A stretch of 64,000 nucleotides of DNA from the NCBI GenBank assembly GCA_043808325.1, contig JAZDEY010000021.1, positions 40,950-104,949 on the forward strand, given 5' to 3'. Source of the stretch: JAZDEY01 sp043808325 [NCBI: Candidatus Eiseniibacteriota bacterium] (GTDB taxonomy: Bacteria > Arandabacterota > Arandabacteria > Arandabacterales). The notes beneath the pieces were generated by a model, which made no database searches, was not told the DNA's origin, and saw nothing but the letters and a program-made list of their open reading frames with translations. Below are positions 28,158-51,600 of the stretch, piece after piece. Position 1 is the stretch's first letter. Every line of letters starts with the position of its first letter. Position numbers and translations under genes: made by a program.

Positions 28158-29804
28158 CTACCGGACCAACAGCACCCGTGCAGTCTCCTGCATGCTCCCC
28201 AAGCTGACACGCATGAAGTACACCCCGGCGGATGCATCATGGCCGCTTTCGTTACGACCATCCCATACCGCCTCCACCTCGCCGGCGCTCAGTGCAAGAC
28301 CATCCACCGTGCGGCAGAGCCGGCCTGTTATGTCAAAGATCTCGATTTCGTAGGGGCCAGCCGTTGGGGCATCAAACCGGGCTGTCACCATCTGGGTGAA
28401 GGGATTGGGAGACACCGAGAAAGAGAAATCCAGCCTAGCCGGCACGCCAGATGAGGCCTCCTCGTAGACCTTCATCGTATAACGCTGGGGGTTGTTTCCC
28501 GTACCTGTCTTTCTGTAAACCTTTATCTGATAGTCGCCGGCCGTGGTAATCGAGTAATCCAACTCCTCTGTCTCCCCGATGCCCTCAGAAGTCGCGTTCG
28601 CCAGGAGGGTCGTTCCGAGGGCATCGTAGAGATCGATGTCCGGATCCGATATCGAGTCGGTCGCGACCCACACCTCAGTGCCCCCGTCAGGGCCGACATA
28701 GTAGCTTGACCCGACCGGATCGACCTCGACCGTGAGCTGCGTGGCCGGGAGCGTTATGCGATACCAATCGACATCCGTGTTGCCGTTGTCGATCGAGAGA
28801 TCGGTGACCACCAGCGAATCCGCAATCGTGCCCAGGATGGTCGGGGTGGTGTTTGTGTCGTTATTCTCATACGGGTCGCCGTAATGGCGCATGCCGCCCC
28901 GAATGTCATCGTCCTTTGGGCCGACACCGAGACTCGGCGAGCAAATGTAAGGCTCCAACAGCTTGGTGCAGTCGGTCGGGATCACGTGGCCGAGACCAAA
29001 GCCGTGCCCGTGCTCATGGCATATGACGTTCTTGAGGTTGCCGTAGTTGGACATGGGATTGTGGTAGAAGTCAACATCATCGGTGTCCAGGACCATGTCG
29101 CCGACGTTAGGGTAGTAGTTGTAGGCAAGGACGTTGCTCGGCCCATCGATCGAGCGGCCGCCGATTCGGACGTCTCCGCGAACCCCCAGGACACCCGAAT
29201 AGTCAGGCATATCGGCGCCGTCATCGGAAACCTCAACATAGGTGATGCCTATGACGGCCTGCCAGCGCGAAAAGGCGTTTCGGATCTTGTCCTGCCAGCC
29301 AAGGCTTCCCCAAGCGCCGGTGAAGACCGCAAAGAGGTTGCTTGCTCCCCCATCTGCCCACGTCCCATCGGGCACGAAGCCCCAGGTGAGGGTGATCGGA
29401 TTCCCGGCGGTGCCCGTGGAAGGGTTGGTGGCGGTCACGGACCAACGAGTCCGAAGATAGTAGTTCAGGGAGTTGTCTTCGCCGAAATACACCGCCAGGG
29501 TCCTGAGAATTCTCTCGGCATCCTCCGGGCGCGTATCGGGGTGGAGGCAGACGTCCACCGGGCCGGATTCGGCTAATCCGATCTCCGCCGGTTCCGCCGC
29601 TTGCTGAGCAAGCCCACGGACGGTCACATCATAGACGATGCGGTCGAAGGGATCCGTAAAGCCCGGGAGCCTGTCGCGCGTAAGAGATCGACTGCCGGGC
29701 ACAAGATCGCCTCCGGGGCCAAGAGAGAGAAGTGCAACAAGTGCGATCAATGGAACGGCTAATCTAAGGGAACGAGCAAAACGGTGACTCCTACCTGAGT
29801 TCAT
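28158..29804 (-). CDS. Matrixin-like (M10) secreted metalloprotease with FlgD-like tail
   Basis: A 548-residue exported protein. The zinc site CHEHGHGFGLGH gives HExxHxxGxxH with His263, Glu264, His267 and His273. Upstream text (IRNAFSRWQAVIGITYVEV) is the usual matrixin approach, so it should be a zinc endopeptidase. After the protease comes a pre-peptidase C-terminal beta-sandwich (about residues 315-450: DVDWYRITLPATQLTVEV ... YQIKVYRKTGT). The tail is a FlgD-Ig/type IX-like domain (FSVSPNPFTQMVTARF ... GVYFMRVSLGS). AAAGGAGAAAAGAAGC precedes the ATG, and a consensus promoter lies 90 bases upstream. The adjacent C25 peptidase and other FlgD-tailed proteins suggest a shared secretion route. 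Confidence 0.87.
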   Translation of the reverse strand: MNSGRSHRFARSLRLAVPLIALVALLSLGPGGDLVPGSRSLTRDRLPGFTDPFDRIVYDVTVRGLAQQAAEPAEIGLAESGPVDVCLHPDTRPEDAERILRTLAVYFGEDNSLNYYLRTRWSVTATNPSTGTAGNPITLTWGFVPDGTWADGGASNLFAVFTGAWGSLGWQDKIRNAFSRWQAVIGITYVEVSDDGADMPDYSGVLGVRGDVRIGGRSIDGPSNVLAYNYYPNVGDMVLDTDDVDFYHNPMSNYGNLKNVICHEHGHGFGLGHVIPTDCTKLLEPYICSPSLGVGPKDDDIRGGMRHYGDPYENNDTNTTPTILGTIADSLVVTDLSIDNGNTDVDWYRITLPATQLTVEVDPVGSSYYVGPDGGTEVWVATDSISDPDIDLYDALGTTLLANATSEGIGETEELDYSITTAGDYQIKVYRKTGTGNNPQRYTMKVYEEASSGVPARLDFSFSVSPNPFTQMVTARFDAPTAGPYEIEIFDITGRLCRTVDGLALSAGEVEAVWDGRNESGHDASAGVYFMRVSLGSMQETARVLLVR

Positions 29805-30108: not shown

Positions 30109-31374
30109 CTATGCCGTCTTTCTCGCCAACAGCAGTTCGATCTCCTTTTCGAGCATCTTCTCCATGCCCGGGCCGTAGCCGATGTGCTTGAAGATCATCC
30201 GGCCGGAAGGGTCCACTATATATGTCGTGGGCGTTGCCCGGACGTTGTATTGCTTGCGCGCAAACTCGGTCTCGTCTAGAAGGATCGGAGCCGTGAATGC
30301 GGCGTCGCTCGCGACCTTCTGGGTCAACTCTTTCCTACCCGTGACATCCACAACCACAATCCTGGCCCCCCTGGTCTGGTACTTGGTATTGATGGCCTCG
30401 AGGTGCGGCAACTCCGCATGACAAGGCCCTCAAGTGGGGCTCATGAAATTGAGGATGACGATGTCGCCCTTGGTGGGCTCGAAGCTCTCAGAGGCGCCCC
30501 CGAGCGTCGGCATCGTAAAAGCAATCGCAGGCTTGGCGGCCACCATCCTGTCCTGCCATACCGCGTCTTCAAACTGCTGCTTCTTCTTCGGGGTGTAACG
30601 CTCCGCAGTCATCAGGGACTCCACCGCAGCTCTCGCGTAGTCGTACTCGCCGGTCACGAGAATGTCTCTATAACTCTTGAAGGCCTTGGCAGTCTCCCCG
30701 GCCTTGAGATAAGCATCAGCCAGGTGCCGCGTCGCGTCTTCAGAGGGCTCTTCAAAGAGCTTGATCGAGTTTTCGAAGTCGGCTATCGCTTCCTTGTACA
30801 TTCCCTTCTTGTAATAAACGTAGCCCCGGCTGTCTATGCATTGAGCGCTGTCTTCGCGGCTCTGGGACAGCTCGATCGATTTCTGACACAGGGACATCGC
30901 GAGATCGAGGTCACGGCCCCGCTCGGCCAGATCGTAGCCGATGTAGTTATAAATCCATCCTGCATTCATTGGAACCGTCAGGAGTTCGGTCCCTATCAGG
31001 ACCGCCTCATCAGGCCTGGAGTCGATCTTCAGATTGTAGAGCCGGTAATACATCGTTGCCTTGCTCTCAGGATCGGTCTCCTTCTCGATGGTCTGCCGAG
31101 CGAAACCCACGAATCTGGTGGTATCTTTGAGGGCGTCGAGCATCTCCTTGGCAATCATCGAGTAGGCCCGCGCCTTCTGCTCACTCTTAGGGAAGTCCGA
31201 GATGAAGCCCTGTAGCCGATCGACCTTTGCCTCGGGGTCCGTGAGTTCGGTGATACCCTTAAGTTCAGCCTGTTCATCCGCGGGTTTGGGAGGCTGTATT
31301 CTGTCCTTGAGGACGTAACCCACGATCACCCCCGCGATCAAGACGACGACGAGAATCCAGAGCCCTGATTTCAT
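30109..31374 (-). CDS. TPR-thioredoxin protein with in-frame UGA at the first redox cysteine (probable selenoprotein)
   Basis: Read through one TGA (30432-30430), this is a single 421-residue protein. A membrane anchor (LWILVVVLIAGVIVGYVL) is followed by helical TPR-like repeats (about 60-270: DSRGYVYYKKGMYKEAIADFENSIKLF) and a TlpA-type thioredoxin domain. The sequence around the TGA reads DIVILNFMSPT-stop-GPCHAELPHLEAIN. The TGA therefore occupies the first Cys of the CxxC motif (Sec315-Gly-Pro-Cys318), and the thioredoxin fold continues in frame to ATPTTYIVDPSGRMIFKHIG. A hairpin resembling a bacterial SECIS follows the TGA. AGGGGGTAAGCG precedes the ATG. The protein would face the periplasm as a thiol oxidoreductase. 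A point-mutated pseudogene is the alternative. kbl lies 68 bases upstream on the same strand. Confidence 0.75.
30394..30432 (-). promoter_or_regulatory. Putative bacterial SECIS hairpin with recoded UGA
   Basis: Starting at the TGA (30432-30430), the minus strand can form a lower stem (30428-30422 with 30400-30394; seven pairs, one G-U). A small internal loop with a U on its 5' side follows, then an upper stem TGCGG/CCGCA (30418-30414 with 30408-30404). The apical loop AGTTG carries the GU used by SelB in Escherichia coli fdhF. The distance from UGA to the GU is 17 bases, in the usual bacterial range. Confidence 0.6.
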
Positions 31375-31442: not shown

Positions 31443-32633
31443 CTATTTTATGACATTATACTTCTTACCCACCTTGGCGAAGGCCGCGATCGCCTTGTCC
31501 AGCTGCTGCCGGTTGTGGGCGGCAGAGATCTGGACTCTGATCCTCGCCTGGCCCTTGGGAACCACCGGGTAGCTGAACCCGATCAAATAGATCCCCTCGG
31601 CTAGAAGATCCCTTGCCATATCGTGGGCAAGCTTGGCGTCTCCCAGCATGATCGGGATAATCGGGTGAACACCCGGTTTAATGTCAAAACCGTTGGCCGT
31701 CATCGCATCCCGGAAATATCTGGTGTTCGTCTCAAGCGTGTCCCTCAGTTGGGTTGTCTCGCTCAGCATTCTGAAAGCCGCGATTGCGGTGTAGACAATC
31801 GCAGGTGCCAGAGTATTGGAGAAAAGGTAAGGCCTCGATCTCTGGCGCAGCATGTCGATCAAGGCCTGCCGGCCGCTGGTGAAGCCGCCCGAGGCGCCGC
31901 CCATCGCCTTGCCCATGGTGCTGGTTATGACATCGACTCTGGCCTGTACTCCGTAGTGCTCGGCAGTGCCGCGCCCGGTCTTGCCGATAAAGCCGGTGCA
32001 GTGGGAATCATCGACCATCACCAGGGCTTCGTACTTGTCTGCAAGATCGCAGATTCGGTCCAGCTTCGCCAGGTCGCCGTCCATGGAGAAAGCCCCGTCG
32101 GTCGCGACCATTCTGATCTTCGCCGCCTGAGTCTCTTTGAGTCTTTCCTCGAGGTCGGCCATGTCCCCATGCTTATAAACCTTGCGATCGGCCTTGCACA
32201 GCCGAATTCCATCGATCACGCTGGCGTGATTCAGGGCATCGCTGATGATCGCGCATTCGGCATCGAGTAAGGTCTCAAAGAGGCCGCCGTTGGCATCGAA
32301 ACATGAGGAATAAAGTATGGTGTCGTCGGTCCCGAGGAAACTGCTGATCTCTTTCTCCAGTGTCTTGTGTATGTCCTGAGTCCCGCAGATGAAGCGGACG
32401 GATGACATGCCGTAGCCGTACTTCTCAAGGCCTTGCTTGGCTGCGGCGACAATCTTGGGATGATTGGAGAGACCCAAGTAATTGTTGGCGCAGAAGTTGA
32501 TCACTTCGCCTTCCTTGACCTTGATGTCCGATCCCTGTGGGGTGAGAATCACCCTCTCGTCCTTGTAGAGTCCTGCCTGCTTGATCTCCTCGAGCGCAGC
32601 TGCGAAACCGTCTCTTACCTTCTTCGGGAACAT
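31443..32633 (-). CDS. kbl: 2-amino-3-ketobutyrate CoA ligase (glycine C-acetyltransferase)
   Basis: A 396-residue PLP enzyme of the alpha-oxoamine synthase family. It converts 2-amino-3-oxobutyrate plus CoA to glycine and acetyl-CoA in threonine breakdown. Characteristic parts are [14 protein letters not shown], the PLP-binding [11 protein letters not shown] and the lysine site [14 protein letters not shown]. Length and end ([19 protein letters not shown]) match Kbl better than the biotin or haem synthases of the same family. GAGGAGGGTGGGTGC precedes the ATG. No threonine dehydrogenase gene is adjacent. The next gene is the UGA-containing thioredoxin-like gene, 68 bases downstream. Confidence 0.93.
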
Positions 32634-32755: not shown

Positions 32756-34987
32756 CTATTTGGCAAGCGTCCGCTTGGCCCGCCTGAGACGGAGCGAATT
32801 GGTCACCACGCTGACCGAACTCACGGCCATCGCGGTCTCGGCGACTATGGGATGAAGCAGGCCGAGGGCCGCAACGGGAATAGCTATCACGTTGTAGAAG
32901 AAAGCCCAGAACAGGTTCTGCCTGATCTTGGCGAATATGGCTCGCGACAACCTGATAGCGCGCACAACCCCGAGAAGGCTTCCACCTGCCAGGGTTATGT
33001 CCGACGACTCCATCGCGATATCGGTGCCCGTGCCGATCGCGATTCCCACGTCGGCCTCGGCCAGGGCCGGCGCATCGTTTATGCCGTCGCCGACCATCAC
33101 CACCTTGCCGAACTTCTGTCTCATCTCCCTGACCTTGAGCGCCTTCTCGGTGGGAAGCACGTTGGCAAAGACGTCAACGATGCCGCATTGGGCCGCTATT
33201 GCCCGTGCGGTTGTTTCGTTGTCGCCGGTAATCATGATCACCCGGAGGCCCATGCTCTTGAGGGCCCGGATCGCCTCGATCGAATCAGGCTTGACCGTAT
33301 CGGCGACCCCAAGGAGACCCACGAGCCTGCCATCCTCGGCAACGCCAACAACTGTGTGGCCGCGGGACTGAATCTCCTGCGCTGCGTTCCTGCTTCCGGC
33401 GAGCGGGACTCCGTTTGCCTGGATGAAATCCAACTTACCGAGGATAACCTGCCTGCCGGCGATGCTTGCCCTGACCCCCAGGCCGGGCTCGGACAAAAAA
33501 TTCTCAGGCTTGGGGAGCCGCCCCTGCGCGGTAACGGCTTGCCTGGCCGCGGCAGCCTCAACTATGGCCTTGGCTATGGGATGCTCGGAGGCATATTCGA
33601 TGGAGGCCGCGGTCCGGAGCAGATGCACCTCGTCGAATCCTTCCGCAGCGACGATCTCGACCACCGAGGGCTGGCCCAAGGTCAGCGTGCCGGTCTTGTC
33701 GATTGCAACCACCTTGGCGTCCTTCGCGGTCTGGACGGCTTCGGTGCTCCGCAGGAGAACCCCAATCTCGGCGCCTACTCCGCCGCCCACCATTATCGCC
33801 GTCGGTGTGGCGAGCCCCAACGCGCACGGGCATGAGATCACAAGCACTGCCACGGCAGCGAAAACCGCGAGCGTCAGTCGTGTTGCCTCCGGATGCGTCA
33901 TGTGGAATCCCAGCACATCATGGAGAGTCCCCATCGCGTCGGGGACAAAGAGCCAGGCCAGGAGAGTCACAAGCGATATCACGAGGATCGCGGGGACGAA
34001 ATAGGCCGTTATCTTATCGGCCAGTCTCTGGATCGGGACTTTGCCTTCCTGGAATTCCTGAACCGCCCGAGCGACCTGGGCCAGGAATGTGGCTTCTCCC
34101 ACCTTGGTGGCCTTCACATTTACGGTGCCGGTCTGATTGACGGTAGCGCCGATCACCTGGTCGCCTTCGCGCTTGTCAACCGGCATCGACTCACCGGTCG
34201 CGATCGATTCATCGACCGTGGTGCGTCCCGAGACCACCACGCCATCGGTCGATATCTTCTCCCCCGGCCTGACGATGAAAACGTCTCCGGGCTGGAGGTC
34301 GCCGATGGGGATCTCCCTCTCGCCGTCAGGCGCGAGGATGGTTGCGGTCTTGGCGGCGAGTCGCAAGAGTCTCTGCACGGCATCCGATGCCCTGCCTCTG
34401 GCCCGCGCCTCAAGGTAGCGGCCCGTAAGATGTATGCCCATTATCATGGCTGCGACGGCGGCGTAGGAATCGATGCTCATGCCGGCGAGCTTCATCACCC
34501 CGGTTGCGAGCGATGAGAGGGTGCCGAGCGCAATCAGCACGTCCATATTGGGAAAGCCGTGGATCACGCTGAGCCACGCACTTCTGTAGACGCTCCGGCC
34601 GGCGTAGAAGAGCACCGGCAGCGAGAGCACCACTATGATCGCATCCAGAGCCATCGTGTGGTGGTGCCCAACCATCTCGATCAGCATCAGGGCTACGACT
34701 GGGATGCCGAGCGCCCAGGCCTGGACCACTCTGGCCCGTGCTGCTACAACCTCATCGAGTCTTGGCCGGGTTGTGGGGACAGTTGCATCGTAGCCGGCGT
34801 TCCTTATGGCCTTGATTATGCCGGCGACCGACACTCTGTCCGGATCAAAGGAGAAAGTGCCTCTTGAGGTTGCGAGATTGGCGGATGCCGAGATCACCCC
34901 GTCGAGCCGTCCGACCGCTCGCTCGATATTGGCTGCGCACGCAGCGCACTTGAGCCCCATGAGATCGAGTTGCACTTTGGTTTCCAT
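32756..34987 (-). CDS. copA: Copper-exporting P1B-type ATPase
   Basis: A 743-residue heavy-metal ATPase. One N-terminal HMA domain carries CAAC (Cys14, Cys17). Eight membrane helices follow, with the intramembranous CPC ([12 protein letters not shown]) typical of Cu+ transport, the phosphorylation site DKTGTLTLG, the TGES-type ATGESMPV loop, an HP dipeptide (SEHPIAKAI) and [10 protein letters not shown]. It pumps Cu+ out of the cytoplasm. Start 34987 is used because GGGGGGCATA precedes that ATG; the frame is open to 34999. The promoter is at 35011-35040. Copper export across the outer membrane would be completed by the cus-type operon at 38-45 kb. Confidence 0.94.
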
Positions 34988-35010
34988 TATGCCCCCCAAG
35001 ACCGCACCTC

Positions 35011-35145: not shown

Positions 35146-35955
35146 TCATCTGGTTTCCACAAGGGAGACCTTCCTGAGGGGGGAGATGGGATCGTTTGAG
35201 TCAAGCTCGATCCAGCGTTGATCCGGCCAGTCCGGCAGTAACTCAACCTGCAGGACGGCCTCCTCGCCTCCGCCTACAACCGTTTGAGTCCAGTCACCGC
35301 TACAGCCGAAGCAGCGCACATCCCGTATGACAAGTTCCTGCTTACCTCTGTTACTTATCACCAATCTGCCCTGCGCGGCCAAGGCTTGATCTCTGATGGC
35401 TCCGCCACTCAAGCGCGAGGCCGGCTCCACGGGCAAAGGGTTCGGCGTGACCACAAGGTGGGGGCCCTCTCCTTCTGTTACTCTGCCCCGGGCCGTAATG
35501 GCGGCACGCGGCCGGATGGGATCGTTGGAATCGACGAACAGCGTCTTGGATGTGACCTCCCTGACTTCATCGCCGAGTAAGGAAAGCGACAACAGGGTCG
35601 CGCCTCCGGGAGGGATGACTTCTCTCTCGATGCCTGCAGTGAGGCACTCACAGGATGTGTAGAGCGAGACGCGCAGGGAATCGTCTCCTCGGTTGGTGAG
35701 CCGGATCTGTGTTGAGACCCGTTCTCCGCGCTTGATCGCGCCGAAATCCCAGAGTTCGCGTTCGAGCGTGATTGCAGGTCCGGGAGGGGGCTCCGTTCTG
35801 GGTGGGGCGCAGGCGACCCACAGCACTACTGTCGAGACGGCAACCATTGAGAGCTGCAGCAACCCCGAGACCCACCCGAATTTCGCGGAGCCGCAGGTCG
35901 GCGCCGTCTCGGGCGCACCGGAGGTCCTCGGGTTCAGCGTGCTCGGCTCGTGCAT
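35146..35955 (-). CDS. DUF1573-domain lipoprotein
   Basis: A 269-residue protein with an N-terminal membrane segment (LLQLSMVAVSTVVLWVAC) ending in a probable lipobox. Two ASPM-SPD-2-Hydin/DUF1573-type immunoglobulin-like domains follow. The first has WDFGAIKRGERVSTQIRLTNRGDDSL and the SCEC cysteine pair typical of DUF1573. The second has LVISNRGKQELVIRDVRCFGCSGDW. These domains are common on exported proteins of this kind of lineage and their role is not known. The gene starts four bases after the barrel-protein stop and is third in an operon with a thioredoxin-like lipoprotein. The CxC and CxxC pairs might be substrates of that thioredoxin-like protein, which is inference. Confidence 0.72.
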   Translation of the reverse strand: MHEPSTLNPRTSGAPETAPTCGSAKFGWVSGLLQLSMVAVSTVVLWVACAPPRTEPPPGPAITLERELWDFGAIKRGERVSTQIRLTNRGDDSLRVSLYTSCECLTAGIEREVIPPGGATLLSLSLLGDEVREVTSKTLFVDSNDPIRPRAAITARGRVTEGEGPHLVVTPNPLPVEPASRLSGGAIRDQALAAQGRLVISNRGKQELVIRDVRCFGCSGDWTQTVVGGGEEAVLQVELLPDWPDQRWIELDSNDPISPLRKVSLVETR

Positions 35956-38185: not shown

Positions 38186-39508
38186 CTATGGTTCGAAGGC
38201 TGCAAGCGCTTCGATCTGGGCCAGCAGCTTCTCGCGCTCGATGCGCATCTGGGCGGCCATGAGCCTCGTCTCAAGAAGCATCCGTTCGTTGTCGAGCAAC
38301 TCGGAAAGCGGCGTCTTGCCGGCCCGGTAGCCGGTCCGGCTTATCTGGACCATCTCTTCGAGCCGGGGGATGATCGAACCCTCAAGCAGCGTAACCTGGC
38401 GCTCGGCGTCCCGCATATCGTAAAGCATCAACACGGCCTCAGCCTTGAAATCACTCTCGGCCTGCCTGCGCATCGCACGGTTTGCTTCCAGATCCGCCTG
38501 GGCCTGCCTGATTGAAGCCTGAATCGCCTCACGCCGGACAATGGGTGCTGTGATCATCGCCATGATGCTCTTGGCCATACCATCGAGGTCGCCCGCGAGC
38601 GTGAGCCCGAGATCGGGAATATACTGTTGCCGCATCAACTTGACGGCTTCCTCTTTGCCCTTGGCCTCATTAGCGAGAGCTGCAAGCTCGGGATTGCGCT
38701 CCGCAAGGAGAGCCAGGATCTGGGCGTCGGTGTAGGGTAAATCTCTCGGTGCCGGAAGATCCTTGGGGAGCGTAAGCGGTGCGTAAGAGTCGCGGCCGAG
38801 CAGCGCATTGATTGCGGCCACTTGACCCGACACCCTCGACTTGAGGGTCTCGACCTCGTTTGCGGCAAGATCGCGGTCGGTCCGGGTCCTGAGCACCTCC
38901 TCGCTGGATGCCGTTCCGGTCCGCAGGCCGGCGCCCGCGGTCTCCGAGGCGATCTCAAGAATCGAGACCTCGGTCTCCTTGATCCGGATGGATTCCCCTA
39001 AGAGCGCAAAGTCATAGTAGGCGGCGAGCACCCTGGTCCTGAGTGCCAACTTGCCGCCATCGAAGCGCCGGCCTGCGGCCCGAGCCATCTCGAGTGCCCG
39101 GCGCCCCGCGGTGGTGAGCTTCCCCGGCCAAGGCAGATTGCCCATGGGATCGTTTCCCACGCCCAGGGTCGTCTGCCGAAGGGACGTCTTGCCCTCTTCG
39201 AACATGGACTCAAAAGAGATTGCCAGATTGGTCCCGGGGCTCGCCTCCTGAGGGATCGCCTCCAGCGCGACGATCCAATCCCAGTAGAGCTTCTCCAGGT
39301 CGGCGTTAGCGGCGTAAGCGTATTCCAGGATGTCTTTGATTGAAGCATCGGCTGCAAGCGCTGCCGGCTCGTGTTTCTGGTATGCCAGGTGTGCGCGTTC
39401 GCGTTCCTCGCGCTCGCCCCGTGGATGAAGCGCGCATGATGTGGTGGCGAGGACGGCCAAGAGCAGGCCTGCGAGTAACCCCGCCTTTATGCGCGTAAGT
39501 CCCGTCAC
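38186..39508 (-). CDS. TolC/CusC-like outer-membrane efflux protein
   Basis: A 440-residue outer-membrane factor. An N-terminal signal segment (IKAGLLAGLLLAVLATTSC) is followed by long amphipathic helices (EEVLRTRTDRDLAANEVETLKSRVSGQVAAINALLG, AIQASIRQAQADLEANRAMRRQ) and the late RTGYRAGKTPLSELLDNERMLLE, the hallmark of the OEP family. It forms the outer-membrane channel of an RND pump. The start is GTG 39508, which overlaps the cusA stop as GTGA; the open frame continues upstream only as antisense-like text within cusA. It is the last gene of the cusB-cusA operon. The lipobox TTSC is atypical, so lipidation is uncertain. Confidence 0.85.
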   Translation of the reverse strand: MTGLTRIKAGLLAGLLLAVLATTSCALHPRGEREERERAHLAYQKHEPAALAADASIKDILEYAYAANADLEKLYWDWIVALEAIPQEASPGTNLAISFESMFEEGKTSLRQTTLGVGNDPMGNLPWPGKLTTAGRRALEMARAAGRRFDGGKLALRTRVLAAYYDFALLGESIRIKETEVSILEIASETAGAGLRTGTASSEEVLRTRTDRDLAANEVETLKSRVSGQVAAINALLGRDSYAPLTLPKDLPAPRDLPYTDAQILALLAERNPELAALANEAKGKEEAVKLMRQQYIPDLGLTLAGDLDGMAKSIMAMITAPIVRREAIQASIRQAQADLEANRAMRRQAESDFKAEAVLMLYDMRDAERQVTLLEGSIIPRLEEMVQISRTGYRAGKTPLSELLDNERMLLETRLMAAQMRIEREKLLAQIEALAAFEP

Positions 39509-42500
39509 GGCTCTGTCCTTTCCCATTCCTTCCGGAGCTGCCAGTGTTTCACGAGATAGAAGATCACCGGATAGACCAGCAGTTCCATCAAGAAGCTGAT
39601 CGTGATCCCGCCCACGAGCGGGGCCACCAGTCTGCGGGTGACATCGGAGCCGGTCCCCGTCACCCACAAGAGCGGAAGCAAGCCGATCATGTCGGTCGCC
39701 ACCGTCATGGTCTTGGGCCGGATTCGCTTGACCGCCCCTTCGTGGATGGCGTCGAAGAGATCGCTGCGGTCCCTCATCCGGCCTTCGCCCTTGAAGCGCG
39801 TAAAGGTGTTGTCGAGATACAAGAGCATCACCTGGCCGGTCTCGGCATCGACCCCCAAGAGAGCGATGATTCCGACCCACACCGCGAGGCTCATGTTGTA
39901 GTGGAGCAGATGAAGGAACCAGAAGGCCCCGATAAGGCTGAAGGGCACGGCCAGCAGCACCACGCCCACCCGGAACCAACTCCTGTTGCTTATGTACAGC
40001 AAGAGCACGATCAGGGCGAAGGTGATCGGCACCACAATCCGCAGCCGTGCATTGGCCTTCTCGAGGTACTCGAACCGGCCCGACCACACCCGGTGATAAC
40101 CGGCGGGCAGCGGGACTTCCTCTTCGACCACTCGCCGCGCATCCTTGACATAGCCGCCAAGATCGCGTCCGGCTATGTCGACGAAGACCCAGGCCGTGCG
40201 GCGCGCGTCCTCGCTCCGGATCATAGGCGGGCCCGGATTGATCTTGATGTCGGCGATCTCGCCCAGCGGGATCTGGGACCCGGTCGGCGCGGCTACCAGG
40301 ACCTGCCTGAGCGCCGGGATGTTGTCCCTGAGCTCGCGCGAATACCGGACATTGACGTTGTAGCGTTCGAGGCCCTCGACGGTGGTTGTGACGTTCATAC
40401 CGCCCAGTGCGGTCATCACCACGTCCTGGATGTCGCCTACCGTGAGACCGTACCGGGCCGCATCCTCACGCCTAGGGGTGACATCAAGGTAGTAGCCCCC
40501 GGTTGTGCGTTCCGGATAGGCACTGATCGTCCCCGGAACGCCTCGAATTGCGACCGCGCAGCGCTGCGCAAGATCGGAAAGAACCTCAAGATCGGACCCC
40601 ATGATCTTGATCCCCACCGGTGTCTTAATGCCGGTTGAGAGCATATTGATTCGGTTCTCGATGGGGAAGGGCCAGGCATTGGCAAGTCCCGGGAAGCTCA
40701 CAACGTCGTTGAGTCCTGGCGCGTGGTAGCCGTTGGGCTCGGTCCATCCAAAGATGAGCTCATCGGTGGTGATCAGCCGTTCCTCGGGCCAGAAGGTCTT
40801 GGTGAAGGGAGCCTTGAGCCACCCCGGCCACCCTCCAAAGAAGCGCCCAACCTTGCGGCGCCGCCAGTGATTTCGGTCGGGGTCCAGCTGGACCACGGTC
40901 TCAATCATCGAGAGCGGAGCCGGATCGGTTGCGGTCTCCGCTCGGCCGATCTTCCCGTGAACGCTCGTGACCTCGGGAAAAGTCTTGATCAACTTATCGG
41001 TCTGTTGCAGCAGTTCCTTGCTCTTGGTGACGCTGATGCTGGGATCGGTGGTCGGCATATAGAGCAGGTCGCCCTCATCGAGGGGCGGCATGAATTCCGA
41101 TCCGATCCTCATCATGGGATAGATGGTCGAGGCGCCGACCAGGAGCACCACGATCAAGGTGGTCTTCGGGCGCCTCATCACGGCTCGGAAGAAGAAATTG
41201 TAGATCGACTGGGAAAGCCGGTTGAGAGGGTTCCTATCCTCGTCCGGGATCTTACCGCGGATAAAGTACACCATGAGGACCGGCACAATTGTGATTCCCA
41301 GGATCGCCCCCGCTGCGATCGCGAAGGTCTTGGTATATGCAAGCGGCTTAAACAGCCTGCCGGACTGCTCGCCCAGGACGAAGATGGGCAAGAACGACAC
41401 CGTGATCACCAGCATCGAGAAGAAGAGACTGGGACCCACTTCGCGCGCGGCTTCAAGGATTATCTCGGTCCTGGGTCGCGCCGGCAGACCCTGGGCCACA
41501 CGTTCCTTCTCACGCGCGAGATGCTTGTGCGCGTTCTCGATCATAACGACGCCGGAGTCCACCATCACGCCGACCGCCAGGGCCAGGCCGCCCAAGCTCA
41601 TTATGTTGGCATTGATGCCCAGGAGCTGCATCACCAGAATCGAGGCCAAAAGCCCGATCGGCAGCACGATGATTGCGACCATGGCGGAACTGACGTGCGC
41701 CAGAAACACGATGCAGATCAGGGCGACCACTACGAGTTCCTCGGTCACCGCGGTTCGAAGCGTGCCTACAGCTCGCCGGATCAGCGCCGAGCGGTCGTAC
41801 GTGGTCTTGATCGCGACACCGGGCGGCAAGCCGTCTTCCAGCTCCGCGAGCTTGGCTTTCACATCTTTGATCGTGCGATAGGCGTTGACGCCGAATCGTG
41901 AGACGATCACTCCACCGACCGCCTCACCCTCGCCGTTCCATTCACCGGCGCCACGCCGGCTCTCGCCGCCAATCGCAAGCGAGGCCACATTGCCGAGCAA
42001 GATCGGGGTGCCGTTGGGGCCGACGCCTATGGGGACGAGGGCAAGATCCTGGAGTCCCTTGATGTAGCCGCGGCTCCGCACCATGTATTCCTTCTCGGAC
42101 ATCTCGATCACTGATCCGCCGACGTCGTTGTTGCTGCGTTCGATCGCCATCACGACGTCCTTAAGCGGCAGGCGATAGGCCAAGAGCTGGTCGGGGTCGA
42201 GGATCACCTGATACTGGCGGACGAAGCCGCCGATTGAGGCGACCTCCGAGACCCCTTCCACCGCGGTCAGCGGAAAGCGGAGGTACCAGTCCTGGACCGT
42301 CCGAAGTTCCGCAAGATCCTGATTTGCCGACACGAGCGGTTTGCCGTCCAGAGGGCACTTGCCCGGGGCGTCGAAGGCGCGGATCCTCTTCAGGGTCTTA
42401 CGGTGCTTCTGCGGCGCATCTTCAGGCTTTGCGTACCAGGTCCCGGTATCGTGTTGCCAGAGACCCCGCGGATGATCCTGGCAATAGTAACCGGGGTAGA

Positions 42501-42930
42501 GGACATACTGGTAAACCCAACCGACGCCGGTCGCATCGGGGCCGAGTTTGGGTTCCACGCCCTGAGGGAGCCTGTCGCGCACGAAGTTCAGGTACTCGAG
42601 CACGCGACTGCGTGCCCAGTAGATATCGGTGCCATCCTCGAAGATCACGTAGACGAAGGAGATCTCGAACATGCTGAAGCCGCGAACGTAGGTGGCGCTC
42701 GGCACCGAGAGCATGGCGCTGCTCAAAGGGTAAGTGACCTGATCGTCGACCACCTGGGGCGCTTGGCCGGGATATTCGGTCACGATGATGATCTGCACAT
42801 CCGAGAGATCCGGAATGGCATCGAGCCGCATGTTCCTTATGGCCCAGATGCCGAGCCCGGTAACGATCGCGGTGATGACCACGACCAGAATCTTGTTCCT
42901 GACCGAATACTCAATGATTTTCGAAATCAT
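39505..42930 (-). CDS. cusA: CusA/CzcA-type heavy-metal RND efflux pump with Cys/His-containing insert
   Basis: A 1141-residue RND transporter with the usual two groups of six membrane helices (MSLGGLALAVGVMVDSGVVMIENAHKHL is the second helix block with the proton-relay Asp). Family text includes LDAIPDLSDVQIIIVTEYPGQAPQVVDDQVTYPL and VYVIFEDGTDIYWARSRV. It exports Cu+/Ag+ or related metals through the CusB and outer-membrane partners. Compared with ordinary CusA, about 56 extra residues are inserted at 147-203 of the periplasmic domain, carrying Cys150, Cys192 and several His (YYCQDHPRG ... APGKCPLDGKPL). This could be an added metal-handling site. The start ATG lies 10 bases after the cusB stop. 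Confidence 0.92.
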   Translation of the reverse strand: MISKIIEYSVRNKILVVVITAIVTGLGIWAIRNMRLDAIPDLSDVQIIIVTEYPGQAPQVVDDQVTYPLSSAMLSVPSATYVRGFSMFEISFVYVIFEDGTDIYWARSRVLEYLNFVRDRLPQGVEPKLGPDATGVGWVYQYVLYPGYYCQDHPRGLWQHDTGTWYAKPEDAPQKHRKTLKRIRAFDAPGKCPLDGKPLVSANQDLAELRTVQDWYLRFPLTAVEGVSEVASIGGFVRQYQVILDPDQLLAYRLPLKDVVMAIERSNNDVGGSVIEMSEKEYMVRSRGYIKGLQDLALVPIGVGPNGTPILLGNVASLAIGGESRRGAGEWNGEGEAVGGVIVSRFGVNAYRTIKDVKAKLAELEDGLPPGVAIKTTYDRSALIRRAVGTLRTAVTEELVVVALICIVFLAHVSSAMVAIIVLPIGLLASILVMQLLGINANIMSLGGLALAVGVMVDSGVVMIENAHKHLAREKERVAQGLPARPRTEIILEAAREVGPSLFFSMLVITVSFLPIFVLGEQSGRLFKPLAYTKTFAIAAGAILGITIVPVLMVYFIRGKIPDEDRNPLNRLSQSIYNFFFRAVMRRPKTTLIVVLLVGASTIYPMMRIGSEFMPPLDEGDLLYMPTTDPSISVTKSKELLQQTDKLIKTFPEVTSVHGKIGRAETATDPAPLSMIETVVQLDPDRNHWRRRKVGRFFGGWPGWLKAPFTKTFWPEERLITTDELIFGWTEPNGYHAPGLNDVVSFPGLANAWPFPIENRINMLSTGIKTPVGIKIMGSDLEVLSDLAQRCAVAIRGVPGTISAYPERTTGGYYLDVTPRREDAARYGLTVGDIQDVVMTALGGMNVTTTVEGLERYNVNVRYSRELRDNIPALRQVLVAAPTGSQIPLGEIADIKINPGPPMIRSEDARRTAWVFVDIAGRDLGGYVKDARRVVEEEVPLPAGYHRVWSGRFEYLEKANARLRIVVPITFALIVLLLYISNRSWFRVGVVLLAVPFSLIGAFWFLHLLHYNMSLAVWVGIIALLGVDAETGQVMLLYLDNTFTRFKGEGRMRDRSDLFDAIHEGAVKRIRPKTMTVATDMIGLLPLLWVTGTGSDVTRRLVAPLVGGITISFLMELLVYPVIFYLVKHWQLRKEWERTEP

Positions 42931-42940
42931 TCAGCGCTCT

Positions 42941-44875
42941 CTACTTGGTGGCCCCGGTTTCAATGGTGCGCGAGATCTGCCCGCACTCGAGCATCGACGA
43001 GCCATAGAAGGGATTGGCGATTCGTTCTTCCACCTGGAGCCAGTCTCCCGGATACATGGAACAATGGACCACGTATAGCTTGCTGCCTACGGCCTTGGAA
43101 GGCGTGACGTGATCGACAAGATGGAGCACGCTTTCACTCAGGGCTCTGAATTGCCTACGCTCGTCTGCGACGGAGGGCGCATCCATGGCAAGCGAGCCTG
43201 CGAGTATGCCCTGGGCAATCGGCTCCAACTCGCCCGCGCCCACTCTGCCGGCAAGGGCCTGGGCTGCCTCGGTGAGAGCTTGGATCGACGCGCTTCCTAC
43301 TGCGCCATCACCGGCGAGGGCTCGCGCCATGTCCAAATACGCCATGACGATCGCGTCCGTCTTGCGCGTGATCTCGGTATCGGTCTCCCGGGCGGCAGCC
43401 GCCCCCTGACTGTTCAGAGCGGCCTCAGTACCGGCCGCCGGCGCCGCCGCGGGCTCAAGCAGCCGCTTCGCGGTCAGCTTCTGAATCGCCTCTCGCGTAC
43501 GGCTCTCCGTATCCAACAGAAATTGTCCGCTGGTCACCACGGTCTCGCCCGGCGCCAGTCCCTCGAGAATCTGAATCGTGCCGTCCGTGGTTTCGATTCC
43601 GGTCTTGACCGAGCGCGGATCGAAACGTCCGCCGCTTAGGGCAACGAAAACGATCTGCCGCCTGCCGGTGTCGATAACGGCTTCACGAGGTATCTGGACG
43701 ACATCCTGGCCGATGTCGATCCCGATCTCGACAGTGGCGTACATCCCGGGCTTCAGGGCCAGGTCGGGATTGGGAAAAGCGATCCTGGCTACAACGGTAC
43801 GCGTGTCGGGATCAAGTTGCGAATTGATGAAGATGACCTCTCCCGAGACCGAATCCTGCGCGAGGCCCTGTACGCGGGCGATGCCCCGCTCTCCCAGCTT
43901 AACGAGCGAAAGTTGGCTCGCGTAGATCTGAGCATCGAGCCAGACCACCGATTGATCGACAATGCGGAAGAGCCTTTGGCCGGCCTCGATCGCCGATCCC
44001 TGGACCACGTCCTTCTCCGTAATGAAGCCGGTGGCCGGGCTCCGGAAGGTGACGGTCTGGCTCACCTTGCGCGACCCCAGAAGCGCATCGATATCGCCTG
44101 TGGCGACGCCCCATAGCTCGAGCTTACCCCTTGCATTGTCGACAAGCGCCTGGGATTCCGCCCTCAAATCCGGGTCAGCGTCCTCGGGCAGCTTCTCGAG
44201 GGCACGCTTTGCAGCCAGCAGCTCTTCCTGGGCCACCAGAAGATCCGGGCTATAGAGATCAAGCAGGGGAGCACCTTTTCTCACCAGCATGCCTTCGGCA
44301 TTGGCGTACAGGCGCTCCACAAAGCCGGCAACCTTTAGTGTGACGTCGTACTGATTGGGCTCGGCCGCGCGGAAATATCCCACGGTCCGGAGCGTGGTCG
44401 CGAGCGGGCCCCGAGTGACCTCGGCGACACGCAGCCCCATGTTCTGGGTTACAACCGGGTCAATTGTGACCGTCGGACCGCCGCGGACCTCATCCTCGTA
44501 GACCGGAACAAGGTCCATTCCCATGGGGCTCATGCCGGGCTTGTCGGAGACATAAGGCGGGTTCATCATGGGATCCCAGTAATAGAGGATCTTGCGCTCT
44601 TGGCCCGCGGTCTCCGCTTTGCCGGCCGCCTCTGCCCGGGTCGCCTCCTGACGAATGGGAGTGAGCTTCATCCCGCAGATGGGGCAGTTGCCCGGCTTGT
44701 CCTGCATCACCTGCGGGTGCATGGAACAGGTCCAGAGAGTAGGTTTGGCGCCGGACTCGGCCGCTGAGGCGGCTCCGCCAGATGCTTTCGGTGCGTCTGA
44801 TCGAGCAAGTGCGGGGAACGCACATATCGAAGCCACAATCAAGATGGCAAGCCACTCATGCCGATAGCTGCTCAT
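42941..44875 (-). CDS. cusB: CusB-type RND adaptor with two heavy-metal-binding segments and a DUF3347-like tail
   Basis: A 644-residue periplasmic adaptor. After the signal peptide comes a heavy-metal-binding domain with WTCSMHPQVMQDKPGNCPICGMKL, then a second, Met-rich, cysteine-free version (YYWDPMMNPPYVSDKPGMSPMGMDLVP). The membrane-fusion core follows (VAGFVERLYANAEGMLVRKGAPLLDLYSPDL, helical hairpin, VVTSGQFLLDTESR). The C-terminal 150 residues resemble DUF3347 and end with VVHCSMYPGDWLQVEERIANPFYGSSML. Such adaptors pass Cu+/Ag+ to CusA. GGGAGGCTTTGAACG precedes the ATG. It is the first gene of the operon, and an inverted repeat lies upstream at 44947-44966. Confidence 0.92.
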   Translation of the reverse strand: MSSYRHEWLAILIVASICAFPALARSDAPKASGGAASAAESGAKPTLWTCSMHPQVMQDKPGNCPICGMKLTPIRQEATRAEAAGKAETAGQERKILYYWDPMMNPPYVSDKPGMSPMGMDLVPVYEDEVRGGPTVTIDPVVTQNMGLRVAEVTRGPLATTLRTVGYFRAAEPNQYDVTLKVAGFVERLYANAEGMLVRKGAPLLDLYSPDLLVAQEELLAAKRALEKLPEDADPDLRAESQALVDNARGKLELWGVATGDIDALLGSRKVSQTVTFRSPATGFITEKDVVQGSAIEAGQRLFRIVDQSVVWLDAQIYASQLSLVKLGERGIARVQGLAQDSVSGEVIFINSQLDPDTRTVVARIAFPNPDLALKPGMYATVEIGIDIGQDVVQIPREAVIDTGRRQIVFVALSGGRFDPRSVKTGIETTDGTIQILEGLAPGETVVTSGQFLLDTESRTREAIQKLTAKRLLEPAAAPAAGTEAALNSQGAAAARETDTEITRKTDAIVMAYLDMARALAGDGAVGSASIQALTEAAQALAGRVGAGELEPIAQGILAGSLAMDAPSVADERRQFRALSESVLHLVDHVTPSKAVGSKLYVVHCSMYPGDWLQVEERIANPFYGSSMLECGQISRTIETGATK

Positions 44876-48667: not shown

Positions 48668-51600
48668 ATGGGATTCTGTCCGCATTGCGGCAGGGAGCTA
48701 TCCAACCACGAGGCCGAGTGCCCCGGCTGCGGGCTCACGATTCCTGCGACCGATCTCACCAAGGCCGCCGATGCGACGCTCCCCGGCACCCTGGCCACCC
48801 AGCCTGAAGAGAAGCCCCTCGAGAAGGGCCGCGTTCTTGGCGGCCGCTACGAGATACTGGAGATAATCGGCAAGGGTGGGATGGGTTGGGTATATAAGGC
48901 CAGAGATCGAGAGATCGATCGCCTGGTCGCCCTCAAAGTGATCCGACATGATCTCGCTAAGGATGATATTGCGATCAAGCGGTTCCGGGACGAGATCGTC
49001 CTTGCCCGCAAGGTAACCCACAAGAACGTACTACGGATCTATGACATCGCCGAGGCCGAGGGCATCAAGTTCATCTCGATGCCCTACATCGAGGGCCAAG
49101 ATCTCAAGACCGTGATCACGGAGAAGGGCGCCCTCGGCATAGACGAGACGATCAGGATCGCCAGCCAGGTGGCCCATGCTTTGAAGTGCGCTCACGAAGC
49201 TGGGGTGATTCATCGGGACCTGAAGCCGCAGAACATAATGATCGACCGTGAGGGAACCGCCTACGTCACCGATTTCGGAATCGCCAAGAGCACCGAGGCG
49301 GGGGGGCTCACGGTGACCGGGCAGATAATCGGAACGCCCGAGTATATGTCCCCCGAGCAGGCGGAAGGCCTTGAGGTGGATCATCGGACGGACCTCTACT
49401 CATTCGGCCTCGTGGTCTATGAGATGCTGACAGGCCAGGTCGCCTTCAAGGCCGACAGCATCATCTCCACTCTGATGAAGCGCCTCAGGGAATACGCCGA
49501 GCCCCCGTCCCGGGTGAATCCTGCGGTGCCCGCGTGGCTCGACAAGCTCACGATGAAGGCCCTGGAGCGGAAACCGGATGACAGGTATGGGTCCGTCGAC
49601 CAGATCCTCGCCGACATCGAGAGTCAAACGGTCAAGCTCAAGCGCAGGCTGGGGCGCAGGTCTATCGCTCTCGTCGCGGCGCTGGTGGGATTGGCGGCGA
49701 TCGTCACCGTCGCATTGGTCCTCAGACCGGCGCTGGTGTTCCACAAGGCAAGAACCTACCTGGCGATCCTGCCCTTCGAAAACAACGCCGGCGAGAGCCG
49801 GCTTGACTGGTTGGTCTCCGGCATTCCGGATAATCTCACCGCCGATCTGGCACAGTCCAAGTTCTTTAGAATCATGAGCCCTGAACGGCTGCGCCAGATG
49901 GTCCACGACCTGGGTGCTGACATGCGCGAGGTTGCTGCACCGGAGGTCACTCGCCGACTTGCGGAGGCCGCCGGGTTGGAGGCCGTTGCCTTCGGCAGCT
50001 TCATCAAGTCCGGAGATGAGATAAGGATAACCCTGAAGGTCGAGAATGCCCGGAACCAGGAAATCCTGGGCACCGATATGGTGAAGGGTTCGGAGGCCGA
50101 CCTCTTGGCCATGATCGACGACCTCGGCAACCGCACCAAGAGGATCTTCAATCTCAGCCAGAAAGACATCGATGCCGACTTCGGCAAGGAGGCCGCGGCC
50201 CAGCGGACCAAGTCGGTCAAGGCGGCGGCCGAGTTTGCCAAGGGGCTGGAGTTCTCATACAGGGGAGCCTCGCTGGATGCGGCCAAGGCATTCGAGGCCG
50301 CAATCAGCTCCGATCCCGATTTCGCGATGGCCTACGCCAAGGCCGCCGACGCCTACCAGAAACTTGGCTATGATGAGAAGGCGGAGCAGCTCTCGCTCAC
50401 GGCCGTAGACAAACTGGTGAAATTCATGGACCGGGTCCCGCCCGCGGACAGGACCTTCATCATGGCGAGCCACGCCGGCATCACCAACAACGCCGATGAG
50501 GCGGTCGAGTCCTATAAGGAATTTATTGCCAAGTATCCCGATGACCCCGAAGGCTATTACAAGCTGGGCGTCACCTATGCCTCCGTGAGCGAGTGGAAGG
50601 GCGCCGAAGAGAATTTCCGCAAGGCCATAAGCCTTGATCCCAAGTTCGGCCCGGCGCGCTTCGAGCTCGGGAAAGTGCTCATAAACCTGGACGAGCTCGA
50701 TAGGGCTCTTCCTGAGCTCCAGCAGGTCCTGAAGCAGGACCAGGATATGGGCAACCGCGAAGGTGAAGCGGACGCCCTAAATGCGATTGGCGTGGTCTAC
50801 AAACGCAAGAATGACTTCGAGAAGGCTCTCACCTATTACCAGGCTTCCACGAAAATAAAGGAGGATCTTGGGGACAAACGCGGGCTTGCGGCAAGTCTGG
50901 GAAACATCGGCTCGATTTACGAAATCATGGGCAAGAGGGAGCAGGCCCTGTCGGTGCTGAAGACGTCACTGGAGATCAGAAAGGAAATCGGGGATAAGAA
51001 AGGCATTTCGACCGCACTCAACAAGATCGGCCAGATATATCAGTCCGATGGCAGGTTAGAAGAGGCTCTCACCAATTACGAAAGGAGCTACGAGCTGAGG
51101 AAAGAGCTTGGCTCCAAGGACCTGATGGCTTCGTCGCTGTCGGATATGGGCACGGTCTATTCCCTGATGGGGCGTTACGATAAGGGTGTGGAGATGGATT
51201 CCATGGCGCTGGCTCTCCGGATGGAGACCGGCGAGCCGCGGGACCAGGCACAGAGCCTGAGGAACATTGCCGAGACCCTGATCAGTCGCGGACAGTTCGG
51301 TGACGCGTGGGCTCGTCTGGCGCAGGCAATCGCGATTGACACTCAGATCGGGGACGCCCGCATCATCGCGAGGGACAATCAGGCCTTGGCGCAGTATTAC
51401 CTCTCCAAGGGCAGGGTTGACAGTGCAATGGTCTGCCTGACCGAGGCCCTCCAGGCCCAGAATTCTATCGAAGATAAACCGTATGCCGCGGTTACGATGA
51501 GCTTTCTGGGTGACGCCTATTTTCGCAAGGGCGAATATACCCTGGCGCTCCGAAGCCTTGACGGAGCGCTCGCGATTGCCGGCGAGACCCAAGACAAGGA

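What the first reader, a model, noticed from the sequence alone, without database searches (positions are those of the whole stretch)
30109..31374. In-frame UGA replaces the first cysteine of a thioredoxin CxxC motif: probable new selenoprotein
The minus-strand frame reads ILNFMSPT, TGA, GPCHAELPHLE. The protein before the TGA ends exactly at the redox site, and the protein after it continues the thioredoxin fold in frame, giving UxxC. A random stop would rarely fall on precisely this codon. The combination of TPR-like repeats, membrane anchor and Sec-type TlpA domain is, to my knowledge, not a described selenoprotein family. A TGT/TGC-to-TGA mutation is the alternative.
Basis: partly seen in the sequence, partly recalled or inferred. 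Interest (0 to 1): 0.92.

Follow-up and report, generated by a model that had tools for sequence, protein, structure and literature searches.

The report
Selenium-using thioredoxin with TPR repeats
A bacterial gene whose internal UGA codon sits exactly at the catalytic cysteine of a thioredoxin-like enzyme very probably reads that codon as selenocysteine; selenium thioredoxins of this kind are known, but this one is joined to a membrane-anchored repeat protein, a combination I did not find described.

Summary
Observation confirmed. On the minus strand (31374 to 30109) a 421-codon gene (membrane helix, TPR repeats, TlpA/ResA-type thioredoxin domain) has one in-frame TGA (30432-30430) at the first active-site cysteine (U315-GPC). 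Coding continues unchanged after it, and TGA is otherwise an ordinary stop here. Directly downstream lies a hairpin that meets the published bacterial SECIS rules and is far stronger than the peptide requires: 0 of 5000 synonymous recodings fold as well; 2 of 1600 random coding positions in the window reach z -4. TlpA genes of Nitrospirota and Desulfobacterota genomes carry TGA at the same codon with a hairpin of the same register: 17 of 17 TGA genes from protein searches (window included) show the loop signature, against 1 of 47 cysteine homologues. Best explanation: a genuine selenoprotein, a membrane-tethered UxxC thiol-disulfide oxidoreductase. UxxC TlpA-like selenoproteins are a published class; the TPR-TlpA architecture looks like a new variant. 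Not testable here: selA/B/C/D in this organism (no genome held) and reads over the codon. No close full-length relative was found, and a covariance model built from the other Sec genes does not single out this site.

The parts
30109..31374 (-). Whole selenoprotein gene, 421 residues with U315, stop TAG; a ribosome-binding-like GGGGG lies 6 bases 5' of the ATG
   Evidence: GC3 continuous across the TGA
31309..31371 (-). N-terminal membrane anchor helix (residues 2-22)
   Evidence: hydrophobic run in the translation; helix 2-22 in the model, at low confidence; membrane role inferred
30655..30909 (-). TPR region with recognisable repeats (residues about 156-240); the helical stretch 32-151 before it may also be repeat-like
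   Evidence: Pfam TPR_1, TPR_2, TPR_12; consensus TPR proteins in PDB by sequence; helices 32-151 in the model
30139..30537 (-). TlpA/ResA-type thioredoxin domain (residues 280-412), with P382 at the cis-Pro position and E321 of the CxxCxxE motif
   Evidence: Pfam AhpC-TSA, Redoxin, Thioredoxin_2; PDB sequence hits 3gl3, 3kcm, ResA; Foldseek top hits ResA, TM-score by target about 0.9; P382, E321, C318 invariant in 13 aligned rows
30430..30432 (-). In-frame TGA (Sec-315), first residue of UGPC
   Evidence: the same codon is TGA in 4 Nitrospirota genes and 13 Desulfobacterota places found by protein search
30421..30423 (-). Resolving cysteine codon TGT (Cys-318)
30394..30428 (-). Bacterial SECIS-like hairpin: lower stem GGCCUUG/CGAGGCC, upper stem UGCGG/CCGCA, loop AGUUG starting 16 nt after UGA; -20.9 to -23.1 kcal/mol depending on the stretch folded
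   Evidence: pairing compared with Sec homologues

Best explanation
The gene encodes a selenoprotein. SelB, bound to the hairpin right after the UGA, delivers Sec-tRNA(Sec) to codon 315. The product is held in the inner membrane by its N-terminal helix, with TPR repeats and a TlpA/ResA-type thioredoxin domain outside the cytoplasm. Sec315 attacks disulfides (or selenenylsulfides) of client proteins, Cys318 resolves the mixed bond, and E321 and Pro382 play their usual ResA/TlpA roles; the TPR part probably docks clients or partners. Shown here: the reading frame, the domain, the position, the hairpin and its non-random strength, and TGA plus hairpin at the same codon in homologues of other phyla. 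Inferred: actual Sec insertion in this organism, topology, direction of catalysis and the TPR role.
For: Frame and position. The hairpin meets the published bSECIS constraints (loop 3-9 nt, stem 4-16 bp, G in the first two loop positions, spacing 16-37 nt, MFE at most -7.5; PMC13188914 Fig. 2 legend; checked). Its MFE is reached by 0 of 3000 and 0 of 5000 synonymous recodings; of 1600 random coding positions in the window 2 reach z -4, the lowest being -4.59, and 3 reach its MFE of -23.1, against z -4.42 at the site. The same codon is TGA in 4 of 6 fetched Nitrospirota places flagged with a stop and in 13 of 13 listed Desulfobacterota places flagged with one TGA. 17 of 17 distinct TGA genes from protein searches (window counted) have GAG[G/T] at the loop and at least 5 of 6 pairs in register, and 15 of 17 pass the generic bSECIS filter; of 47 Cys genes 1, 7 and 8 do. 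Pairing: 4 of 6 pairs change on both sides among 33 Sec genes, 0 of 500 shuffles. SelB is over the curated cut-off in 22 of 23 genomes chosen for a UxxC TlpA gene and 12 of 19 others.
Against: No selenocysteine machinery could be looked for in the window's own genome; no tRNA gene and no Rfam match in the window. No full-length relative was seen: no listed match spans both parts in 198 Nitrospirota and 345 Desulfobacterota genomes (capped lists, 5 to 9 candidates scored per genome), 0 of 897 matching plasmid records cover 80% of the query, and the viral contigs gave none. Conservation of the TGA within this very family is therefore untested. A covariance model from 32 other Sec genes does not single out the window site (8.2 bits, rank 2 of 18 matches at chance level) and scores some Cys genes higher (up to 23.5 bits): the likeness is limited to loop and register. 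Without the window row the covariation is modest (2 of 6 pairs, 22 of 500 shuffles as high) and a slid control has a slightly higher covariation score (0.164 against 0.157). The generic bSECIS filter alone passes 482 of 1981 TGAs of the window. The synonymous test misses likely Sec genes (L028 z -0.13). Two of six flagged Nitrospirota places had Cys at this codon.
Confidence: 0.92

Rival explanations
1. A recent TGC/TGT-to-TGA nonsense mutation (or a sequencing or assembly error) in an ordinary CGPC TlpA gene; the product is truncated or the base is wrong.
For: One base change separates TGY from TGA; CGPC occurs among the Cys homologues (L022, L024, L027); no close relatives and no reads to check.
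Against: It would have to hit the one codon where homologues in two other phyla use TGA and coincide with a hairpin whose z score 1 or 2 of 1600 coding positions reach, in the register and with the loop signature of the TGA genes. Codon bias after the TGA is intact.
Confidence: 0.06
2. UGA is reassigned or suppressed to Trp, Cys or Gly throughout this genome rather than read as Sec.
For: Reading through gives a full domain.
Against: 12 of 34 inspected ORFs end in TGA; the only other TGA with coding-like flanks is an antisense shadow; the hairpin would be unexplained.
Confidence: 0.01
3. Two separate genes: a membrane-anchored TPR protein that ends at the TGA, and a downstream thioredoxin-like ORF.
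For: Table 11 gives ORFs 30430-31374 and 30109-30411.
Against: The split falls inside the fold, between strand 305-311 and helix 316-335, and the downstream ORF as listed starts after the CxxC motif and lacks it.
Confidence: 0.01

Closest known systems
UxxC TlpA-like selenoproteins: 'Thiol-disulfide isomerase-like protein' (cd02966, UxxC) and 'Prx-like thiol:disulfide oxidoreductase' (PF00578, UxxC/UxxU), as listed in PMC13188914 (the latter also in PMC9312934)
   Same: Same domain superfamily, Sec at the first position of CxxC
   Different: Listed as domain families; the word tetratricopeptide does not occur in PMC13188914. I saw passages and tables only, and cd02966 itself was not searched
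Nitrospirota and Desulfobacterota UxxC TlpA genes found here (L059, L041, L173 and others)
   Same: TGA at the same codon, hairpin in the same register, loop beginning AG[G/U]
   Different: The 21 Nitrospirota proteins are 192-222 residues long without room for the TPR part; many read UPWC, UPNC or UPLC rather than UGPC; stem mostly GGAAGG/CCUUCC
ResA / StoA / DsbE (CcmG) thiol-disulfide oxidoreductases
   Same: Fold and CxxCxxE spacing; top solved structures for the domain
   Different: Cys in place of Sec, no TPR (recalled); the window protein scores below the NCBIfam cut-offs (69.9 bits against 170 for ResA)
ResA-like WAxxUGC motif-containing protein (NCBIfam NF041054)
   Same: A Sec-type ResA-like family by its name
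   Different: UGC rather than UxxC; the window protein scores 22.3 bits against a cut-off of 300
CnoX chaperedoxin (thioredoxin plus TPR)
   Same: Thioredoxin fold joined to TPR repeats (PMC6282202: search listing and start of abstract only; TPR detail recalled)
   Different: Recalled: Trx domain first, cytoplasmic, thioredoxin rather than TlpA type, no Sec

Membership tests
Bacterial selenoprotein gene | In-frame UGA with the protein continuing in frame and homologous on both sides | tested here: met
Bacterial selenoprotein gene | UGA pairs with a conserved Cys in homologues | tested here: met
   47 distinct Cys homologues aligned at this codon; domain level only, no full-length relatives
Bacterial selenoprotein gene | bSECIS hairpin directly downstream meeting published constraints | tested here: met
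   the spacing of 16 nt is at the lower bound
Bacterial selenoprotein gene | TGA-containing homologues in other organisms | tested here: met
   (TlpA domain level only)
Bacterial selenoprotein gene | selA, selB, selC, selD in the same genome | not testable with these tools
   no genome held for the window
UxxC TlpA-like (cd02966/PF00578) selenoproteins | AhpC-TSA/TlpA-like domain with UxxC | tested here: met
   PF00578 59.8 bits against cut-off 26; cd02966 itself was not searched
NCBIfam NF041054 WAxxUGC_long | Score over the curated cut-off and UGC motif | tested here: not met
   22.3 of 300 bits; the motif is UGPC
ResA (NF002854) | Score over the curated cut-off | tested here: not met
   69.9 of 170 bits; the fold matches ResA

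The most novel reading that the evidence does not exclude
A previously undescribed selenoprotein architecture: a membrane-anchored TPR scaffold carrying a Sec (UGPC) TlpA domain, probably in a lineage outside the two phyla searched, whose SECIS uses the same 16-nt spacing and AG[G/U] loop as UxxC TlpA genes of those phyla. This would imply either inheritance or transfer of the domain together with its SECIS, or repeated convergence on codons that fit both the protein (E-L-P) and SelB.
Probability: 0.55. Interest if true: 0.5.

Novelty: new variant of a known kind. Interest (0 to 1): 0.45.

Why it matters
Standard annotation splits this gene at the active site (the table 11 ORFs). The finding adds a further lineage and a TPR-linked architecture to the UxxC TlpA selenoproteins. 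It also shows a simple loop signature (GAG followed by G or T over the loop, 16 nt after UGA) that 17 of 17 TGA genes and 1 of 47 Cys genes had at this codon, which could help to find more.

Tried and rejected
Genome-contig scan with the whole protein: 7 loci, all matching only the TPR repeats; not relatives, but they served as doors to genome handles. Search for full-length relatives in 198 and 345 genomes of the two phyla reached: no listed match spans TPR and TlpA parts; the lists are capped and only 5 to 9 candidates per genome were scored. Viral contigs: none; the 78 pattern matches there included no TlpA gene by HMM and serve as a chance control. Plasmids by tblastn (10 of 897 records listed): partial matches only. 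A plasmid search with the neighbouring glycine C-acetyltransferase gene told nothing about the lineage.

Held-out covariance model R1 did not discriminate; rejected as evidence. Generic bSECIS filter alone: unspecific. Tree of 36 TlpA domains: the window row is a long branch with unsure place; one origin of Sec is not rejected (p-AU 0.21) and not shown; the 17 other Sec rows group with weak support (74/77).

Global reassignment of TGA rejected. Second selenoprotein in the window: none found by the codon-use scan.

Paper searches (20 of 29, 15 of 19, 12 of 14, 8 of 59 and 8 of 8 papers listed): no listed paper is about a TPR-TlpA selenoprotein; only open-licence PMC papers are held. In PMC13188914, PMC9312934, PMC2398784, PMC1088965 and PMC12013277 I saw found passages, with parts of tables and legends, not whole texts. 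My notebook says 8 control genomes; a recount of the table gives 7.

Full report
What is there. The minus-strand gene 31374-30109 has 421 codons with a single in-frame TGA at codon 315 (30432-30430) and ends in TAG. The first part has a hydrophobic N-terminal helix and TPR repeats; the last 140 residues are an AhpC-TSA/Redoxin/Thioredoxin_2 domain whose match runs across the TGA. By sequence, the nearest solved structures for this domain are a Chlorobium DsbE-like protein (3gl3), a Geobacter thioredoxin-family protein (3kcm) and ResA (engineered TPR proteins match the repeat part). By fold they are ResA and 3gl3, with TM-scores of about 0.9 over the target. The model is confident in the C-terminal domain (block means mostly 85-96) and weak in part of the TPR region (mean pLDDT 66.2 overall). 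Residue 315 stands just before the active-site helix. U315, C318 and E321 have the CxxCxxE spacing of ResA, whose C74, C77 and E80 variants appear among the hits. C318, E321 and P382 are invariant among 13 aligned Sec genes, the window included.

Is it more than a stray stop? Codon bias is the same on both sides (GC3 0.73 and 0.78), and TGA ends 12 of 34 inspected ORFs, so it is a normal stop in this organism. Among all TGAs of the window, only this one and a weaker antisense site have coding-like sequence on both sides by the thresholds used.

The hairpin. The 53 bases from the TGA fold at -23.1 kcal/mol (z -3.5 against dinucleotide shuffles, 1 of 200 as good). The structure meets the published bSECIS rules (read in the legend of Fig. 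2 of PMC13188914; checked): loop AGUUG of 5 nt, upper stem of 5 bp, G in loop position 2 followed by U, 16 nt between UGA and loop. The rules alone are loose: 482 of 1981 TGAs in the window pass. The energy is not loose: 0 of 3000 and 0 of 5000 synonymous recodings of the same peptide fold as well. Of 1600 random coding positions of the window, 7 reach z -3, 2 reach -4 and the lowest is -4.59, against -4.42 here; 3 reach an MFE of -23.1. With local codon usage the site scores -4.62, and 18 Cys homologues score between -1.66 and +1.44. The four Nitrospirota TGA genes score -3.40, -1.80, -1.74 and -0.13, so the test is not sensitive.

Relatives. Searching genomes of two phyla reached through unrelated TPR hits, I found TlpA-domain genes with TGA at exactly this codon. 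Of 6 fetched Nitrospirota places flagged with a TGA, 4 have it at this codon and 2 have Cys there. Of the Desulfobacterota matches listed (a capped list), 13 were flagged with one TGA and 13 of 13 have it at this codon. The phylum names are inferred from the titles of loci L001, L002, L005 and L006; the title of L007 says Deferribacteres, but its genome was drawn in one phylum with that of L001. Of 17 distinct TGA genes found by protein search, window included, 17 carry GAG followed by G or T at the loop, 17 pair at 5 or 6 of the 6 in-register positions, and 15 pass the generic filter. Of 47 distinct Cys homologues the figures are 1, 7 and 8.

A codon pattern chosen after the first four genes (so biased for the loop) hit 35 of 395 Nitrospirota genomes (control, pattern reversed: 7 genomes by my count). 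Of 88 distinct sites in the loci then held, 22 including the window are TlpA genes by an HMM made from the homologues, and 66 are not; none of the 22 is from a viral contig. In the alignment of 33 Sec genes 99.0% of pair cells are standard pairs, and 4 of 6 pairs change on both sides (0 of 500 shuffles as high). Without the window it is 2 of 6 (22 of 500 shuffles), and the structure slid by one column has a covariation score of 0.164 against 0.157. Much of the covariation thus comes from the window itself against a rather uniform set.

Machinery. SelB above its curated cut-off is present in 22 of 23 genomes chosen for a UxxC TlpA gene (two of these, G182 and G557, judged from the matched letters only; the exception is G699, completeness not told) and in 12 of 19 genomes taken from the best TlpA matches without a pattern match. 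The association is in the expected direction, but it concerns other organisms. For the window's own organism nothing could be tested.

Results against or neutral. The held-out covariance model does not recognise the window site above noise, and some Cys genes score higher, probably because they encode a similar peptide. The tree does not place the window domain (end branch 1.68) and neither shows nor rejects one origin of Sec (p-AU 0.21). No full-length relative was found. So the shared loop may be inherited or convergent. TTG is used for 131 of 1275 leucines (10.3%) in 24 window ORFs, so GAG-TTG is an uncommon but not rare choice.

What it is. Best reading: a selenoprotein thiol-disulfide oxidoreductase of TlpA/ResA type, probably acting outside the cytoplasm, with Sec as attacking residue and Cys318 as resolving residue, tethered to a TPR scaffold. 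The gene lies 3' of a glycine C-acetyltransferase gene (31443-32633; TIGR01822 over its cut-off) and a P-type metal ATPase gene with an HMA domain (32756-34999) on the same strand; any functional link is speculation.

Novelty. UxxC thioredoxin-fold selenoproteins are common in the tables I saw. PF00578 UxxC is listed in PMC13188914 and PMC9312934, and cd02966 UxxC in PMC13188914 (passages and tables). The five paper searches listed no paper on a TPR-TlpA selenoprotein, and no NCBIfam model in the list for this protein is above its cut-off. I therefore call it a new variant of a known kind.

Noticed in passing
35146-35955 (-): DUF1573 protein; DUF1573 proteins with a UGC Sec motif are a listed selenoprotein family (PMC13188914). 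Here the sequence reads SCEC, with cysteines.
   Followed up: no
32756-34999 (-) and 38186-44875 (-): P-type metal ATPase with HMA domain, outer-membrane efflux protein and CusB/HlyD-like protein: a probable heavy-metal efflux cluster; the large ORF 39505-42930 between them was not searched.
   Followed up: no
28158-29804 (-), 52378-54798 (+), 56595-59024 (-): Proteins with FlgD-like or Por-type C-terminal sorting tails (some below the curated cut-offs), one matrixin-like metalloprotease and one with a sub-cut-off match to the T9SS sortase PorU; suggests an FCB-type bacterium.
   Followed up: no
L041 and L042 (G022, G012): Nitrospirota UPLC TlpA genes form a fully supported pair on a long branch beside the UPWC clade; like the window they read NFM in place of NFW and may be a separate Sec family.
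   Followed up: partly
L176, L177: Divergent Desulfobacterota UxxC genes (FFKTFUPNC, FFGTAUPAC) without the Trp before Sec; L177 has a strong hairpin (-20.2 kcal/mol).
   Followed up: no
48668-52330 (+): 1220-residue protein with Ser/Thr kinase and TPR-type matches.
   Followed up: no
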